Source: Ruminococcus sp. (GTDB lineage: Bacteria; Bacillota; Clostridia; Oscillospirales; Ruminococcaceae). Taken from it: DNA of 34,491 nucleotides. Positions 16,322 through 22,565 of this stretch are shown in pieces. The notes under the pieces were generated by a model. That model did no database searches and had not been told where the DNA came from. It saw nothing but the letters and a program-made list of their open reading frames with translations. The stretch spans positions 1 through 34,491 of the forward strand of contig JAFXVT010000007.1 in the NCBI GenBank assembly GCA_017534835.1. The letters are read 5' to 3'. The stretch's first letter is position 1. Each line of letters starts with the position of its first letter. The position numbers were made by a program, and so were the translations under genes.

Positions 16322-16368
16322 ACAAGGGCTTGACCTCTGCGTTCAACACAGGTCAAGCCCTTATTTTT
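16322..16368. terminator. Terminator after the PfkB gene
   Basis: AAGGGCTTGACCT (16324-16336) pairs perfectly with AGGTCAAGCCCTT (16350-16362) and is followed by ATTTTT. The preceding AAAAA allows use by the convergent transporter gene, whose stop codon overlaps the U-tract region. Confidence 0.9.
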
Positions 16369-17698
16369 ATTCCTTGTCCTCGGATTCGGGGACTGTATCT
16401 GTATGGAGCTTTTTTACGCGGCACAGCTCGACGCGGTGGTGATGTATCTCGAGCACATCTATCCGCAGACCGTCGCATTCGAGGTAGGTCTTTGAGCCGT
16501 CCTTCGGTATCTCGCCGAGACCTGCGATAACATAGCCGCCGAAGGTATCGAACTTATCCGCCGGAAGCTCTATCCCGAGCTCCTCGCAGATGTCGCTGAT
16601 AGGCGTGATACCGGGTATCAGCCACTGGTCGTCTGCTATCTGTTCGAGCTCTGCTTCGGTCTCGCCGGTCTCATCGTCGTCGAAGTCGCCGACGAGCTGC
16701 TCGACGAGGTCGGTAACGGTAACGATACCGGTCATTCCGCCGTATTCGTCAACAACGACGGCAAAGTGGTCGGCGCCTTTTTTCTTCATCTGGGCGAACA
16801 GAGCGTCCGCCTTCATAGTTTCGTGGACGAAATACGGCTCGCGGACGGCGTTAGCCATTATATTCCCGCGGCTTTTATCATCGAGCCGGAAATAGTCCTT
16901 CGCGTTGAGGATACCGATAACGTTATCAACATTTTCGCCGCATATCGGGAAAACCGAGTGGCGTGTGCGGTGAATGGTCTCCTCCCACGTCTCGACGGGG
17001 TCGCGGCTCCAGAGCACGGAAACGTCGGTGCGGTGGGTGCAGACCTGCTCGGCAGTCGTATCGTCGAACGCGAAAACGTTCTTGATTATGCGGTTCTCGT
17101 CCTCGTCGATAGTGCCTTTTTCGGCACCGGCGTCGGACATCATCATTATCTCCTCCTCGGTCACGGCGTCCTCCTCCTTGTGGGGGTCGATGCCGATGAT
17201 ACGCAGGACGGTGTTCGCGGAGATATTGAGCACCCACACGAGCGGCGCAAGGACTGCCATCAGAAGTCCGACTGTGCCAGCCATACCGAGTGCAAGCTTT
17301 TCGGCGTGCTTGGCAGCGACCTTTTTCGGTACGAGCTCGCCGAACACGAGTATTATGTAAGCGATGAGCAGGGTGAGTATCACGACAGCGGCGATGTGAA
17401 CGGCTTTTTCTGGGACACCGATACCCGTCTTCATTATCAGCTCAGTGAGCGGAGCAGCGAAGAAGTCGGCTGCAAAAGCCGCCGCAAGGAAGCCGGTGAG
17501 CGTGATAGCCACCTGCAATGTTGTCAGGAAGCGCGTTGGCTTTCCTGTAAGTTTTTTGAGCTTTACGGCTTTTTTGTCGCCGCCGGCTGCGAGCTTGTCC
17601 AGCCGTGAATCGTTTATGGTTATAACTGCGGCTTCAGCGCAGGCGAAGGCCGCGTTGAGCACTATCAGTGTAACCTGAATAATAATCTGCCAGACCAT
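16367..17698 (-). CDS. CNNM/CorC-type membrane transporter with CBS domains (hemolysin family)
   Basis: The start is ATG 17698, with AAAGGAG upstream; the frame stays open beyond it but that part overlaps a leader region. The 443-residue protein has an N-terminal DUF21/CNNM membrane domain with four helices (about 1-180, including the ITINDSRLDKLA and AYIILVFGELVPKKVA motifs), a CBS pair (about 200-330, with YGGMTGIVTVTDLVEQLVGD) and a C-terminal CorC_HlyC domain (about 345-425). Although often called hemolysins, related bacterial proteins such as MpfA/CorC act in magnesium homeostasis, mainly efflux, so magnesium transport is the best inference. Its roughly 165-nt 5' leader holds a small ORF and a terminator-like hairpin, described separately. 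It is transcribed alone. Confidence 0.92.
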   Translation of the reverse strand: MVWQIIIQVTLIVLNAAFACAEAAVITINDSRLDKLAAGGDKKAVKLKKLTGKPTRFLTTLQVAITLTGFLAAAFAADFFAAPLTELIMKTGIGVPEKAVHIAAVVILTLLIAYIILVFGELVPKKVAAKHAEKLALGMAGTVGLLMAVLAPLVWVLNISANTVLRIIGIDPHKEEDAVTEEEIMMMSDAGAEKGTIDEDENRIIKNVFAFDDTTAEQVCTHRTDVSVLWSRDPVETWEETIHRTRHSVFPICGENVDNVIGILNAKDYFRLDDKSRGNIMANAVREPYFVHETMKADALFAQMKKKGADHFAVVVDEYGGMTGIVTVTDLVEQLVGDFDDDETGETEAELEQIADDQWLIPGITPISDICEELGIELPADKFDTFGGYVIAGLGEIPKDGSKTYLECDGLRIDVLEIHHHRVELCRVKKLHTDTVPESEDKE

Positions 17699-17710
17699 TA
17701 TCTGTCTCCT

Positions 17711-17788
17711 TTGGTAAAAAGATATAAGTATGCACGAAAAGGCATAGCCTAACACCGGAAGCAGCGCAGACCATGCCTTGATATATCA
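17711..17788 (-). promoter_or_regulatory. Attenuator-like hairpin upstream of the CNNM gene
   Basis: On the minus strand AAGGCATGGTCTG (17781-17769) pairs with TTAGGCTATGCCTT (17752-17739), 7 perfect base pairs at the base and further G-U and G-C pairs above, followed by TTCG and then a U-rich tail. The 5' arm lies inside codons 20-24 of the leader ORF and the 3' arm begins at its stop codon, so a translating ribosome would disrupt it. Confidence 0.55.
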
Positions 17789-17838
17789 TTTATAGCAAAG
17801 GAATAGCGGTAATTACACCCGTCAGGGGTACTGTCCAT
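17749..17838 (-). CDS. Leader peptide of the CNNM gene, 29 aa
   Basis: ATG 17838 has a strong ribosome binding site (GGAGGTGA, nine bases upstream) and opens a 29-codon ORF ending at TAG 17751-17749, in a leader whose promoter is about 35 bases upstream. The peptide begins MDSTPDGCNYRYSFAINDIS and ends RHGLRCFRC. The acidic, proline-containing start (D2, P5, D6) resembles in character the destabilising leader peptides of magnesium-transporter genes, such as MgtL, though not in sequence. Its 3' half overlaps the attenuator-like hairpin. A regulatory role in controlling the transporter is inferred; a fortuitous short ORF is the alternative but is less likely given the ribosome binding site and position. 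Confidence 0.6.
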   Translation of the reverse strand: MDSTPDGCNYRYSFAINDISRHGLRCFRC

Positions 17839-17870
17839 TAAAATTCTCACCTCCGGAGCTGATTTTTTAT

Positions 17871-17899
17871 ATTATATCATATTAGTTAAGAAATAGCAA
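17871..17899 (-). promoter_or_regulatory. Promoter of the CNNM leader and gene
   Basis: On the minus strand TTGCTA (17899-17894) and TATAAT (17876-17871) are 17 bp apart. The transcript should begin near 17864, giving a leader of about 165 nt before the transporter ATG. Confidence 0.85.
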
Positions 17900-17925
17900 G
17901 AGGACGCGGCAAAAAACTACCGCAC

Positions 17926-20548: not shown

Positions 20549-21829
20549 TCATCCCTCTGCGGAATCAAGAGCGGCGCAGAACTCCCTGTACATATACAGC
20601 GAGCCGAGCGCGATGAGCGGTATTTTTTCCGCCTTCGCAAAGCTGTAGGCAGCCTTTACGCCCTCGCTGAGGTCTGCGAAGCTCTGAGCCGGTATATCCT
20701 CGTTCGTGAACACGACAGCGAGCTTATCACTGTCGAGAGCACGCGGATTATCGGGCTTTACAGTGAACACGCGGCTCACCTGATGACCGAGTATCCTCGG
20801 GTACAGACTGTAATCCTTGTCCGCCATGACCCCGATGAGAAGAGCTATTTTCCCGTCGCCGAAGCAGTGGCGGATACTTGCTGCCGCCTGACGTATACCG
20901 TCGGGATTGTGAGCGCCGTCGAAAATGACTACAGGCTCGGAGCGGAGCAGCTCGAATCTGCCGTGCCAGTGCGTTTCGGCGAGCCCCTTGCGCACAGCTT
21001 CGTCGGATATTTCGAGTCCTTCGCGGCGGAGGAGCTCAACTGCCGTGAGGACGTTTGCGATGTTGTATATCTGATACGTGCCGATGAGCGGTACACGCGC
21101 CTTGCCGAAGCCGTCGAATTCGAGCTCGGTGCCGCTGATACCGGTAGATGTGCCGAGAGTACGCATCTGGTCGGTCACGCTCAGGGGCGCATTCTTCTCG
21201 TATGCGGCAGCTGAGATGACCTCAAACGCGTCGAGGTCGGTGCCGCCGTAGAGAACAGGTCTGCCCTCCTTGATGATACCGGCTTTGTGGCGCGCTATCT
21301 CGCGGACAGTGCTGCCGAGAAAGGCGGTGTGGTCGAGCGCGACATTCGTTATAACGGACAGCAGCGGCGATTCAACGACGTTCGTGGAATCGGAATCCCC
21401 GCCCATTCCGCATTCGATTATGGCGACATTGCAGTCCACGCGGCGGAAGAGCTCGTAAGCCGCAGCTGTGAGCACCTCGAATTCCGTGGGCTTATCCTCC
21501 ATAGATTCGCACGCAGGGATAATATCGTTCATCACCCACGTGAAGACATTCTGCGATACTTCGCGGCAGTTTATGCGGAAGCTGTCAGTTACGCCTGTGA
21601 GGGCGGGGGAGGAGAAGCTTCCGACAAGATAGCCGGCAGAGCGCAGGATATGGCTGAGCATAGCCGAAAACGAGCCCTTGCCGTTCGTGCCTGCAACGTG
21701 GATTATCTTTGTTTCGTTCTGAGGGTCGCCGAGAATATGGCAGAGCTCGGTGATGCGTTCAAGACCGAGCTTGCTGCCTCTTTTTGCAGCTATTCCGAGG
21801 TATTCAAGAACTTCTGCGCTGTTTGCCAT
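20549..21829 (-). CDS. folC: Folylpolyglutamate synthase / dihydrofolate synthase
   Basis: The 426-residue protein shows the Mur-ligase-like FolC organisation. The P-loop is IHVAGTNGKGSFSAML (GTNGKGS at 47-53), followed by GSFSSPALTGVTDSFRIN, the metal-binding VAIIECGMGG, SVITNVALDHTAFLGSTVREIARHKAGIIKEG, and in the C-terminal domain HWHGRFELLR and VVIFDGAHNPDGIRQ. It adds glutamate to folates (and possibly to dihydropteroate), retaining them in the cell. Its start overlaps the end of the upstream folate-transporter gene by 26 bases, so the two are translationally coupled and share the tetrahydrofolate riboswitch. The pairing with an uptake protein suggests salvage. It may well be a folylpolyglutamate synthase only. 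Confidence 0.95.
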   Translation of the reverse strand: MANSAEVLEYLGIAAKRGSKLGLERITELCHILGDPQNETKIIHVAGTNGKGSFSAMLSHILRSAGYLVGSFSSPALTGVTDSFRINCREVSQNVFTWVMNDIIPACESMEDKPTEFEVLTAAAYELFRRVDCNVAIIECGMGGDSDSTNVVESPLLSVITNVALDHTAFLGSTVREIARHKAGIIKEGRPVLYGGTDLDAFEVISAAAYEKNAPLSVTDQMRTLGTSTGISGTELEFDGFGKARVPLIGTYQIYNIANVLTAVELLRREGLEISDEAVRKGLAETHWHGRFELLRSEPVVIFDGAHNPDGIRQAAASIRHCFGDGKIALLIGVMADKDYSLYPRILGHQVSRVFTVKPDNPRALDSDKLAVVFTNEDIPAQSFADLSEGVKAAYSFAKAEKIPLIALGSLYMYREFCAALDSAEG

Positions 21830-22397
21830 AATTACACATCCTGTCTATCTGCTCGGAGAACGCTCTGTTCTTCATAAGCAGGAGTATTACAGCCGACTCA
21901 ACGATAACGATGCCGATGTAAAGCGGAACGCGCCACATAAACATAATTGTTATCGGGTACTGACCGCCGAAGAGGTGATACAGACCGATAGTCTTTATTA
22001 TCATCGAGCCGACGATATGTGCAGCAAGGTCAGCGAGAACGATGCTGAGAGTCTTGTTGCTTCTGAACATATACATTGATACGAGACCCGAAACTATGCC
22101 GATGCTGACGAAGCCGAGCGTAGTCACAGGGTTGGGGGGGAAGCCCTTGAGCAGGCAGCCGAACATATCTGCTCCGAAGCCGACTGCACCGCCGACAAAC
22201 GGACCGAACCAGATGCCAGCCATAACTATCGGCAGATTTTCGATGCCGATCCTTGCAAAGGGCATAACGTCGATCGAGAGCACCTTTCCGACCGCACCGC
22301 TGAGCGCTGTGAGGAGCGCTGCGATGATGAGCACGCGGACATTGCCGAAAAGCTTTATGTTTCCGACAGCTGTGTTGTTCTGTTTGGTTGTATACAT
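21804..22397 (-). CDS. folT: Folate ECF transporter substrate-binding S component
   Basis: The 197-residue protein has about six hydrophobic segments and the S-component pattern: VRVLIIAALLTALSGAVGKVLSIDV, then RIGIENLPIVMAGIWFGPFVGGAVGFGADMFGCLL, PPNPVTTLGFVSIGIVSGLV and a helix near the C-terminus. The sequence around FARIGIENLPI and the downstream folC point to the FolT group, which binds folate and works with the shared EcfA/A'/T module encoded elsewhere. Expression is controlled by a tetrahydrofolate riboswitch directly upstream. The ribosome binding site AAGGAGG lies inside a terminator-like hairpin, ending seven bases before the ATG. Confidence 0.92.
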   Translation of the reverse strand: MYTTKQNNTAVGNIKLFGNVRVLIIAALLTALSGAVGKVLSIDVMPFARIGIENLPIVMAGIWFGPFVGGAVGFGADMFGCLLKGFPPNPVTTLGFVSIGIVSGLVSMYMFRSNKTLSIVLADLAAHIVGSMIIKTIGLYHLFGGQYPITIMFMWRVPLYIGIVIVESAVILLLMKNRAFSEQIDRMCNYGKQRRSS

Positions 22398-22439: not shown

Positions 22440-22463
22440 TATTCCTCTTATATATTGTCCTAT

Positions 22464-22559
22464 GAAGCGGGATGCAAAGCGCGAACCGCGGCTTTATGCC
22501 TTCGTCCTGCCGACAACTCCCCGTCCGACAGGCACTTAACGAACTCGCTTTTACTCTTC
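22464..22559 (-). ncRNA. Tetrahydrofolate (THF) riboswitch
   Basis: Read on the minus strand, the segment from AGAGTAAAAGCG through GTTCGTTAAGTG, a variable hairpin, GGACGAAGG, a short stem, CGCGGTTCGC and TTTGCATCCCGCTTC follows the THF riboswitch consensus (conserved TTAAGTG, CGAAG, CGCGGTGAA-like and GCATCCGCTC blocks). Its position before a FolT-family folate transporter and folC is the classic context. High tetrahydrofolate should stabilise the aptamer and favour the downstream terminator/SD-blocking hairpin, lowering folate uptake. The identification is from recalled consensus; a covariance-model search would settle it. Confidence 0.9.
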
Positions 22560-22565
22560 AGTTTG

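What the first reader, a model, noticed from the sequence alone, without database searches (positions are those of the whole stretch)
17700..17900. Possible leader-peptide attenuator controlling a CNNM/CorC magnesium-type transporter
The transporter leader has a strong promoter, a Shine-Dalgarno and a 29-codon ORF that begins MDSTPDG (acidic and Pro-containing) and ends inside a hairpin followed by a short U-rich tract. The hairpin's 5' arm is in codons 20-24 and its 3' arm starts at the leader stop, so ribosome position should decide whether it forms. Magnesium-sensing leader peptides of a similar acidic/Pro kind are known for MgtA/MgtL, but I know of no described one for CNNM genes. A model in which full translation (stable ribosomes at high Mg) prevents the terminator and raises an exporter is attractive but is inference.
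Basis: partly seen in the sequence, partly recalled or inferred. Interest (0 to 1): 0.75.

Follow-up and report, generated by a model that had tools for sequence, protein, structure and literature searches.

The report
Acid-start leader peptides gating magnesium transporters
A short leader peptide with an acidic start sits in front of a probable magnesium-exporter gene and seems to let the ribosome's own stability decide whether the exporter is made; related leaders stand before magnesium transporter genes in other Clostridia.

Summary
Observation confirmed. A promoter-like site, a strong Shine-Dalgarno and a 29-codon ORF (MDSTPDGCNY...) precede a CNNM/CBS/CorC gene; the ORF's stop lies in a hairpin (dG -21.3) followed by TTTT. 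The leader is conserved: 92 of 102 CNNM genes in the genus (Ruminococcus flavefaciens group) have one. Codons 2-8 are under peptide-level constraint (pN/pS 0.31-0.41), later codons near neutral, yet the ATG-to-hairpin distance stays in frame in 57 of 60. In 60 of 92 a strong hairpin overlaps or abuts the ORF's end; in 10 the leader stop overlaps the CNNM start; 25 show neither. Elsewhere in Clostridia 36 of 177 CNNM genes have different Asp-rich leaders, against 3 of 165 control genes; so have 15 of 59 MgtE magnesium-transporter genes (MDSDPLP...). Best model: at low Mg2+ ribosomes drop off at the acidic start (intrinsic ribosome destabilization) and the exporter stays off; completed leader translation turns it on. 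Translation coupling rests on sequence; the Mg2+ link rests on the MgtL/MgtQ precedents and on recurrence before two magnesium transporter families. Nothing was tested experimentally. New variant of a known kind.

The parts
17871..17899 (-). Promoter-like site TTGCTA-N17-TATAAT with extended -10 TG
   Evidence: 10 of 12 consensus matches; transcription start not mapped
17847..17854 (-). Shine-Dalgarno GGAGGTGA of the leader
   Evidence: sequence; GGAG[AG]TG 5-14 nt before the leader ATG in 65 of 120 genus genomes
17749..17838 (-). Leader ORF, 29 codons, MDSTPDGCNYRYSFAINDISRHGLRCFRC*
   Evidence: leader before 92 of 102 genus CNNM genes
17815..17838 (-). Conserved acidic/Pro start, codons 1-8 (MDSTPDGC): proposed ribosome-destabilizing sensor
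   Evidence: pN/pS 0.31-0.41 in frame in four length groups; 81 of 92 leaders are exactly M(D/E)xx(P/A)DG
17741..17777 (-). Hairpin GGCATGGTC...GGCTATGCC containing the leader stop codon
   Evidence: dG -21.3; fold; ten stem positions paired in 37-42 of 42 unique genus hairpins, (arms were found by pattern)
17737..17740 (-). Short T tract (TTTT) after the hairpin: weak terminator-like tail
   Evidence: sequence; not called by the scan
17706..17712 (-). Shine-Dalgarno AAAGGAG of the CNNM gene
   Evidence: sequence
16367..17698 (-). CNNM/CBS/CorC_HlyC transporter gene (443 aa from ATG, MVWQII...)
   Evidence: start chosen by its SD and by relatives

Best explanation
It is a translated leader ORF that gates a CNNM-type (putative Mg2+ exporter) gene through the stability of the ribosome itself. 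Ribosomes start on the leader from a strong SD and at once meet an acidic/Pro start (Asp2, Pro5, Asp6 in MDSTPDG; Asp-rich in other genera). If the ribosome is unstable (low Mg2+) it drops off here, the hairpin downstream folds and transcription ends, or no ribosome reaches the CNNM start. If it is stable (ample Mg2+) it runs to the stop, sits on the hairpin so that it cannot form (or, where the leader stop overlaps the CNNM start, re-initiates there), and the exporter is made. Shown by sequence: conserved start, constraint on codons 2-8, frame kept into the hairpin, ORF overlapping or abutting the hairpin, ATGA overlaps, recurrence before CNNM and MgtE genes in Clostridia. Inferred: drop-off at the acidic start, termination at the hairpin, Mg2+ as signal, ON-at-high-Mg sign, Mg2+ export by this CNNM.
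For: Leader before 92 of 102 genus CNNM genes, 81 exactly M(D/E)xx(P/A)DG, 83 distinct peptides. pN/pS for codons 2-8: 0.31, 0.41, 0.40, 0.36 in frame in four length groups (19, 7, 13, 10 unique); off-frame 0.5-5.2; codons 9 on 0.61-1.05 in frame. ATG-to-arm distance 1 mod 3 in 57 of 60. Hairpin dG <= -10 with T tail in 60 of 92 genus leaders (stop inside it 51, inside the ORF 5, starting within 12 nt after the stop 4, further away 0), shuffled 8 of 92; in 28 of 36 other leaders (13 inside, 11 stop inside, 4 at 0-10 nt after the stop), shuffled 16 of 72. Leader stop overlaps the CNNM start in 10 genus loci (11 flagged, L084 false) and in L279 and L354. Leader-like uORF before 36 of 177 CNNM genes outside the genus and 3 of 165 control genes, p 2e-8, and before 15 of 59 MgtE genes, p 2e-7 against the same controls. 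In L242 a motif leader, MDSSPDGWRRLTE, precedes MgtE. First Arg codon CGA in 18 of 29 of the CNNM leaders outside the genus, against 54 of 1101 Arg codons in the body of CNNM ORFs. In L183 a CNNM itself starts MDGSPDGS behind the same SD spacing. Precedents, passages only: MgtL EPDP drop-off at low Mg (PMC11282234), MgtQ Asp2/Glu5 (PMC8092293), Mg2+ counteracts IRD (PMC9718836), corC and mgpA induced by high Mg with YoaL suggested to raise mgpA (PMC12421838).
Against: No expression, Mg2+ or ribosome data for any of these. The window motif has only two acidic residues, fewer than strong IRD sequences, and codon 5 is not always Pro (31 of 47 unique). The rule that found the leaders itself asks for D/E at codon 2 and fixes allowed residues at codons 5-7, so their presence there is partly by selection and pN/pS is biased down; the 10 loci outside the rule were read and show no leader with another start, only a decayed one in L117. 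25 of 92 genus leaders have neither a hairpin at dG <= -10 nor a start overlap. 10 of 102 genus CNNM genes lack the leader, and 141 of 177 outside the genus. The T tail is short in the genus (4 of 7 in 32 of 60). A 4-bp mini-hairpin in codons 3-8 is possible in 34 of 53 unique sequences and this stretch folds 1.1 kcal/mol better than a synonymous resampling, so a small RNA-level part is not excluded. Hairpins with T tails also precede 51 of 141 leaderless CNNM genes. p values are not corrected for kinship.
Confidence: 0.67

Rival explanations
1. A leader of the same architecture that senses something other than Mg2+: general translation capacity, ribosome-targeting drugs, EF-P state or polyamines. 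Completed translation still prevents the hairpin.
For: The sequence evidence shows translation dependence, not the signal. The best NCBIfam match of the protein is the polyamine exporter PaeA, below its cutoff (229.7 of 500 bits).
Against: Acidic starts are the Mg2+-sensitive feature in MgtL and MgtQ. Acidic leaders recur before two unrelated magnesium transporter families, CNNM and MgtE, and rarely before control genes. The choice of Asp at codon 2 over unrelated leaders is not expected of a general translation sensor.
Confidence: 0.18
2. Classical amino-acid attenuation: the leader senses charged tRNA for Asp, Pro, Gly or Arg (CGA).
For: Asp-rich leaders and a CGA codon as first Arg in 18 of 29 leaders outside the genus.
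Against: The window leader has no run of one codon. The conserved codons lie far upstream of the hairpin and those near it are near neutral. The window fold shows no competing antiterminator (none was searched for systematically), so a stall at codon 6 should switch the gene off. CNNM and MgtE have no known link to amino-acid supply.
Confidence: 0.06
3. A structured RNA or riboswitch in which the ORF is incidental.
For: Conserved hairpin with changes on both sides at stem positions 5 and 8; possible mini-hairpin at codons 3-8.
Against: No Rfam match in the window leader up to E 10 except one weak hit on the other strand; none at gathering score in eight other loci. Codon constraint in the right frame, in-frame distances and the CGA bias need translation.
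Confidence: 0.04
4. The ORF encodes a small functional protein that acts in trans.
For: Peptide-level constraint on the first eight residues.
Against: Length 12 to 48 residues in the genus with unrelated C-termini; near-neutral change after codon 8.
Confidence: 0.03

Closest known systems
MgtL leader of mgtA (Escherichia coli, Salmonella), [17 protein letters not shown] (sequence)
   Same: Short leader with acidic/Pro start before a Mg2+ transporter gene; ribosome drop-off at the start is the sensor (PMC11282234 passages). PRR stretches follow the acidic start in some CNNM leaders here (L104-L106, L281, L283, L337), and MgtE leaders with DPLP starts (L440, L456, L459) resemble it most.
   Different: MgtL controls an importer through a Rho-dependent terminator and completed translation switches it off. 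In the window an exporter-family gene, an intrinsic-type hairpin or start overlap, and completed translation should switch it on.
MgtQ (8-codon ORF before mgtB, Salmonella)
   Same: Asp2 and Glu5 with Pro4 close to the start, strong SD, ribosome destabilization needed (PMC8092293 passages).
   Different: Controls RBS access of an importer; less leader translation gives more product.
YoaL-yoaE (mgpA), and the IRD start of CorC/YbeX
   Same: YoaL starts MD and overlaps yoaE; loss of its start lowers MgpA; corC and mgpA rise at high Mg (PMC12421838 passages). Same sign and similar cargo.
   Different: Enterobacteria; MgpA has a TerC, not CNNM, membrane domain; no terminator mentioned in the passages read; YoaL's start MDRHRRHF is not Asp/Pro-rich; its signal was left open by the authors.
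Amino-acid attenuators such as TrpL
   Same: Ribosome position on a leader ORF decides on an intrinsic terminator.
   Different: No codon run for one amino acid in the window leader and no antiterminator seen in its fold.

Membership tests
Leader-peptide transcription attenuator | Translated short ORF upstream, conserved as an ORF | tested here: met
   92 of 102 loci; codon constraint; frame kept in 57 of 60. Translation itself not measured
Leader-peptide transcription attenuator | Intrinsic terminator whose formation depends on ribosome position | tested here: inconclusive
   Hairpin plus T tail overlapped by or abutting the ORF in 60 of 92 and 28 of 36; T tail weak in the window; termination not testable here
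IRD-type Mg2+ sensor leader (MgtL kind) | Acidic/Pro residues in the first codons | tested here: met
IRD-type Mg2+ sensor leader (MgtL kind) | Mg2+-dependent ribosome drop-off at that sequence | not testable with these tools
   needs in vitro translation or toeprinting
IRD-type Mg2+ sensor leader (MgtL kind) | Downstream gene is a Mg2+ transporter | tested here: inconclusive
   CNNM + CBS + CorC_HlyC, related to the archaeal CorB structures 7m1t/7m1u; transport not tested and some relatives export polyamines. Similar leaders stand before MgtE
Mg2+ riboswitch (M-box, RF00380) | Match to the family | tested here: not met
   none in the window; none in the whole genome, while 2 of 14 control genomes ring
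Amino-acid attenuator | Run of codons for the product amino acid near the hairpin (window leader) | tested here: not met
   leader sequence. Asp clusters exist in leaders of other genera but at the start, away from the hairpin

The most novel reading that the evidence does not exclude
In Clostridia the first codons act as a portable magnesium fuse for magnesium transporters: an Asp/Pro start, in many leaders followed by the slow CGA codon, placed on a separate leader or on the exporter's own N-terminus. The ribosome's Mg2+-dependent stability, with no protein or RNA receptor, sets synthesis: exporters (CNNM) wired ON when the leader is completed, importers (MgtE) wired the other way, as the L242 leader with its two competing hairpins suggests.
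Probability: 0.42. Interest if true: 0.92.

Novelty: new variant of a known kind. Interest (0 to 1): 0.82.

Why it matters
How bacteria sense excess Mg2+ to make exporters is little known: the passages read on MpfA describe no leader and the authors on corC/mgpA call the mechanism unclear. A receptor-free gauge built from an acidic leader and a hairpin would explain it for a large group of gut bacteria, would show the MgtL principle used with the opposite sign, and can be tested directly with a few substitutions in a laboratory reporter.

Tried and rejected
Rfam at gathering and at E 10: nothing convincing in the leader, nothing at gathering score in eight other loci. Viral contigs: no motif. 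Motif pattern in the genome collection: 89 stretches: 59 before a CNNM by tblastn (54, 5), 2 genus-type leaders cut by the locus end (L220, L249), 1 before MgtE (L242), 27 others that look like chance; of these only L165, L182, L246, L248 and L250 had their neighbourhood printed. Strict pattern over 197 family genomes: 2, both in the genus. M-box in own genome: none. Acidic N-termini of CNNM proteins without a leader as proof of the same device: kept only as a lead, because CNNM N-termini face outward (recalled) and acidity there is expected; the test that leader and acidic N-terminus exclude each other is weak (p 0.04). One search used wrong starts for L267 and L276 (2 of 109), corrected before and later. 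The stem pair count is biased because the arms were found by a pattern. In one search L084 was flagged as an overlap, but the frame there is not CNNM. L433 was dropped (clipped at 313 bases) and L484 too (clipped). Sampling: the 80 order regions and 40 class regions were picked by hand from capped lists; the 60 MgtE loci are the best-scoring ones of two searches, not a random draw, and gene starts were called by script. The L278 leader passes only the wider rule; by the narrower rule CNNM counts are 35 of 177, controls 3 of 165 by both.

Full report
What is there. The window lies in a genome of the Ruminococcus flavefaciens group (inferred from the titles of related motif loci; the window itself is unnamed). 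On the minus strand there is a promoter-like site at 17899-17871, SD GGAGGTGA at 17854-17847, an ORF from ATG 17838 to the stop ending at 17749, MDSTPDGCNYRYSFAINDISRHGLRCFRC, a hairpin at 17777-17741 that holds the stop codon (dG -21.3) and four T. 50 nt after the stop comes ATG 17698 of a 443-residue protein with CNNM, CBS and CorC_HlyC domains, related by sequence to the archaeal CorB structures 7m1t/7m1u. The best NCBIfam model is PaeA, well below its cutoff.

Conservation in the genus. 102 of 120 genus genomes have a CNNM match at E <= 1e-60. I took the upstream DNA of all 102. 92 have an SD-preceded ORF of the M(D/E)xxPDG kind by a tolerant rule, 81 of them exactly M(D/E)xx(P/A)DG, with 83 distinct peptides; 10 do not (L052, L068, L072, L091, L095, L107, L109, L110, L114, L117), of which L117 has a decayed form, MDGAAACS, with a hairpin. 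The motif with SD, as a DNA pattern, hits 65 of the 120 genomes and the pattern read backwards none. In the named genome collection it gives 89 stretches: 59 before a CNNM, 2 genus-type leaders cut by the locus end, 1 before MgtE, 27 others.

Constrained as peptide only at its start. Among four groups of leaders of equal length (19, 7, 13 and 10 unique), pN/pS for codons 2-8 is 0.31, 0.41, 0.40 and 0.36 in frame and 0.5 to 5.2 in the other two frames, while codons 9 on give 0.61-1.05. The search rule fixes allowed residues at codons 2 and 5-7, which lowers pN; the contrast between frames and the absence of other starts among the 10 excluded loci argue that this is not the whole effect. The distance from ATG to the hairpin's 5' arm is 1 mod 3 in 57 of 60 leaders with the arm, over nine lengths from 52 to 82 nt; related sequences are included. 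So the later codons may drift but the frame into the hairpin is kept. A 4-bp mini-hairpin in codons 3-8 can form in 34 of 53 unique sequences, so a minor RNA role is not excluded.

Output. A hairpin of dG <= -10 followed by a T tail is present in 60 of 92 genus leaders: the stop is inside it in 51, it lies wholly inside the ORF in 5, it starts within 12 nt after the stop in 4, never further; one shuffle of each leader gives 8 of 92. In 10 leaders the stop overlaps the CNNM start as ATGA (L096, L097, L104, L105, L106, L108, L111, L112, L115, L116); seven of these have no such hairpin. 25 of 92 have neither. In both the hairpin and the overlap forms the sense is the same: a ribosome that completes the leader favours CNNM expression. 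This is inference from architecture.

Beyond the genus. From order- and class-wide searches with PF01595 I examined 177 CNNM upstreams (29 + 80 and 29 + 39 loci), picked from capped lists. 36 have a leader-like ORF with an acidic start, of quite different sequence: MDSDSSDDYDNC, MDGDSCDPDANT, MDDSPLPERS, MDDIPEDIRS, MDPLPRSRS, MDSVPRRRR and so on; at least L369 (MERWMELSEL) looks like chance. Among 165 control genes from loci of the genus, order and class 3 have such an ORF (Fisher p 2e-8, not corrected for kinship). 28 of the 36 have a hairpin of dG <= -10 with a T tail: 13 inside the ORF, 11 with the stop in the hairpin, 4 beginning 0-10 nt after the stop; 8 have none; shuffles give 16 of 72 and 51 of 141 leaderless CNNM upstreams have one. 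Several are strong terminator-like hairpins with five or six T read through by the leader frame, for instance L339, L258, L272, L279.

A second magnesium transporter. Of the motif loci outside the genus, L242 (a MAG titled Clostridiales bacterium DTU086) has MDSSPDGWRRLTE 50 nt before a gene with MgtE, MgtE_N and CBS domains. Between them two hairpins compete: one holds the mgtE SD in its loop (part of the best fold, z -4.93), the other, TCAGGGGC...GCCCCTGA, starts just after the leader stop and frees it (-20.1 against -16.1 kcal/mol taken alone). A ribosome at the leader stop would block the second and so shut mgtE, the sign expected for an importer; this is inference from one locus. I then looked at 59 usable MgtE loci, the best-scoring ones of two searches: 15 have a leader-like ORF by the same rule (p 2e-7 against the same 3 of 165), and 26 have an SD-preceded short ORF starting M(D/E). 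Several read MDYDPLP, MDSDPLP, MDFDPLP, MDSGPLP, close to MgtL's MEPDPTPLP. How these leaders work was not resolved; in several the leader stops 13-17 nt before the mgtE start.

A codon signal. In the 36 CNNM leaders outside the genus the first Arg codon is CGA in 18 of the 29 that have Arg, while CGA is 54 of 1101 Arg codons in the body of CNNM ORFs. In the first 14 codons of the CNNM ORFs themselves CGA is 10 of 24 (p 2e-7), as in MDSIPR-, MPDDSIPR- and MDDVPR- starts, which resemble the leaders MDSIPRRG and MDSVPRRRR. In L183, a MAG titled Clostridia bacterium, a CNNM protein begins MDGSPDGS directly behind the same SD spacing. These suggest that one start element can sit on a leader or on the exporter. 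In genus leaders CGA is 24 of 175 Arg codons, a weaker bias not tested against that genus's own usage. That CGA is decoded slowly is recalled.

Mechanism. Acidic and acidic/Pro residues early in a chain make ribosomes abort, and high Mg2+ counteracts this (PMC9718836, passages). MgtL and MgtQ use it for Mg2+ importers. corC and mgpA rise at high Mg2+ and the leader YoaL is suggested to raise mgpA (PMC12421838, passages). CNNM relatives MpfA and YhdP act in Mg2+ export (PMC8242095 and PMC6711546, passages). The most likely reading for the window is an ON-at-high-Mg gauge: drop-off at the acidic start lets the hairpin form, completed translation prevents it. The CGA codon in other leaders would lengthen the dwell of a short acidic peptidyl-tRNA; this is my inference. 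The window's genome has no M-box and no MgtE match at E <= 1e-10.

In print. Ten searches (leader peptide with intrinsic ribosome destabilization and magnesium; MpfA with CNNM, 31; CorC with leader terms, 32; mgtL terms, 37; Ruminococcus with leader peptide, 38; YoaL/YoaE, 39; ribosome destabilization terms, 70; DUF21 RNA motif, 73; IRD with Clostridium, 81; magnesium exporter with leader peptide and attenuation, 82) listed, among the titles and abstract starts shown, no paper on such a leader before a CNNM gene in Clostridia. The main texts of an attenuator survey (PMC2965389) and an RNA-motif survey (PMC8632094) hold none of the words hemolysin, magnesium, CorC or CBS (domain). Subscription journals are mostly not in the library, and leaders before MgtE were not searched for in print.

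Verdict. Leader ORF real and translated: very likely. Completed translation favours the exporter: likely. Mg2+ as the signal: likely since the same kind of leader recurs before MgtE, but untested. New variant of a known kind, with high interest because a few substitutions in a laboratory reporter would decide it.

Noticed in passing
L242:3893-5349 (+) and MgtE loci L436-L495: Acidic leaders also precede MgtE magnesium transporter genes: MDSSPDGWRRLTE in L242 and MDxDPLP-type leaders elsewhere; 15 of 59 usable loci by the same rule. Several MgtE leaders contain a stretch complementary to their own start region (GGTAGCTATGG / CCATAGCTGCC in L449).
   Followed up: partly
window 22463-22560 (-): THF riboswitch (RF01831, 80 bits) upstream of a 197-residue membrane protein ORF at 21804-22397 that looks like an ECF-type substrate-binding component.
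   Followed up: no
L183:4929-7752 (+): Tandem pair of CNNM genes whose first member starts MDGSPDGS, the genus leader motif, with the same SD spacing.
   Followed up: partly
leaders of L281, L283, L288, L289, L291, L316, L337, L343, L398, L400, L425 and others: The first Arg codon after the acidic start is the rare CGA in 18 of 29 leaders outside the genus, and CGA is also enriched in the first 14 codons of CNNM ORFs.
   Followed up: partly
L119-L130, L132, L133 (genus members, MDNAPDGSIP-type leaders): Leaders of 12-23 codons without strong hairpin or start overlap, 13-51 nt before the nominal CNNM start; how they would act is unexplained.
   Followed up: partly
51 of 141 leaderless CNNM upstreams: Hairpins with T tails also occur before CNNM genes without a recognised leader; some may be other attenuators, terminators of the gene before, or leaders that my rule missed.
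   Followed up: no
G000 whole genome: No M-box Mg2+ riboswitch and no MgtE found in the window's genome.
   Followed up: yes
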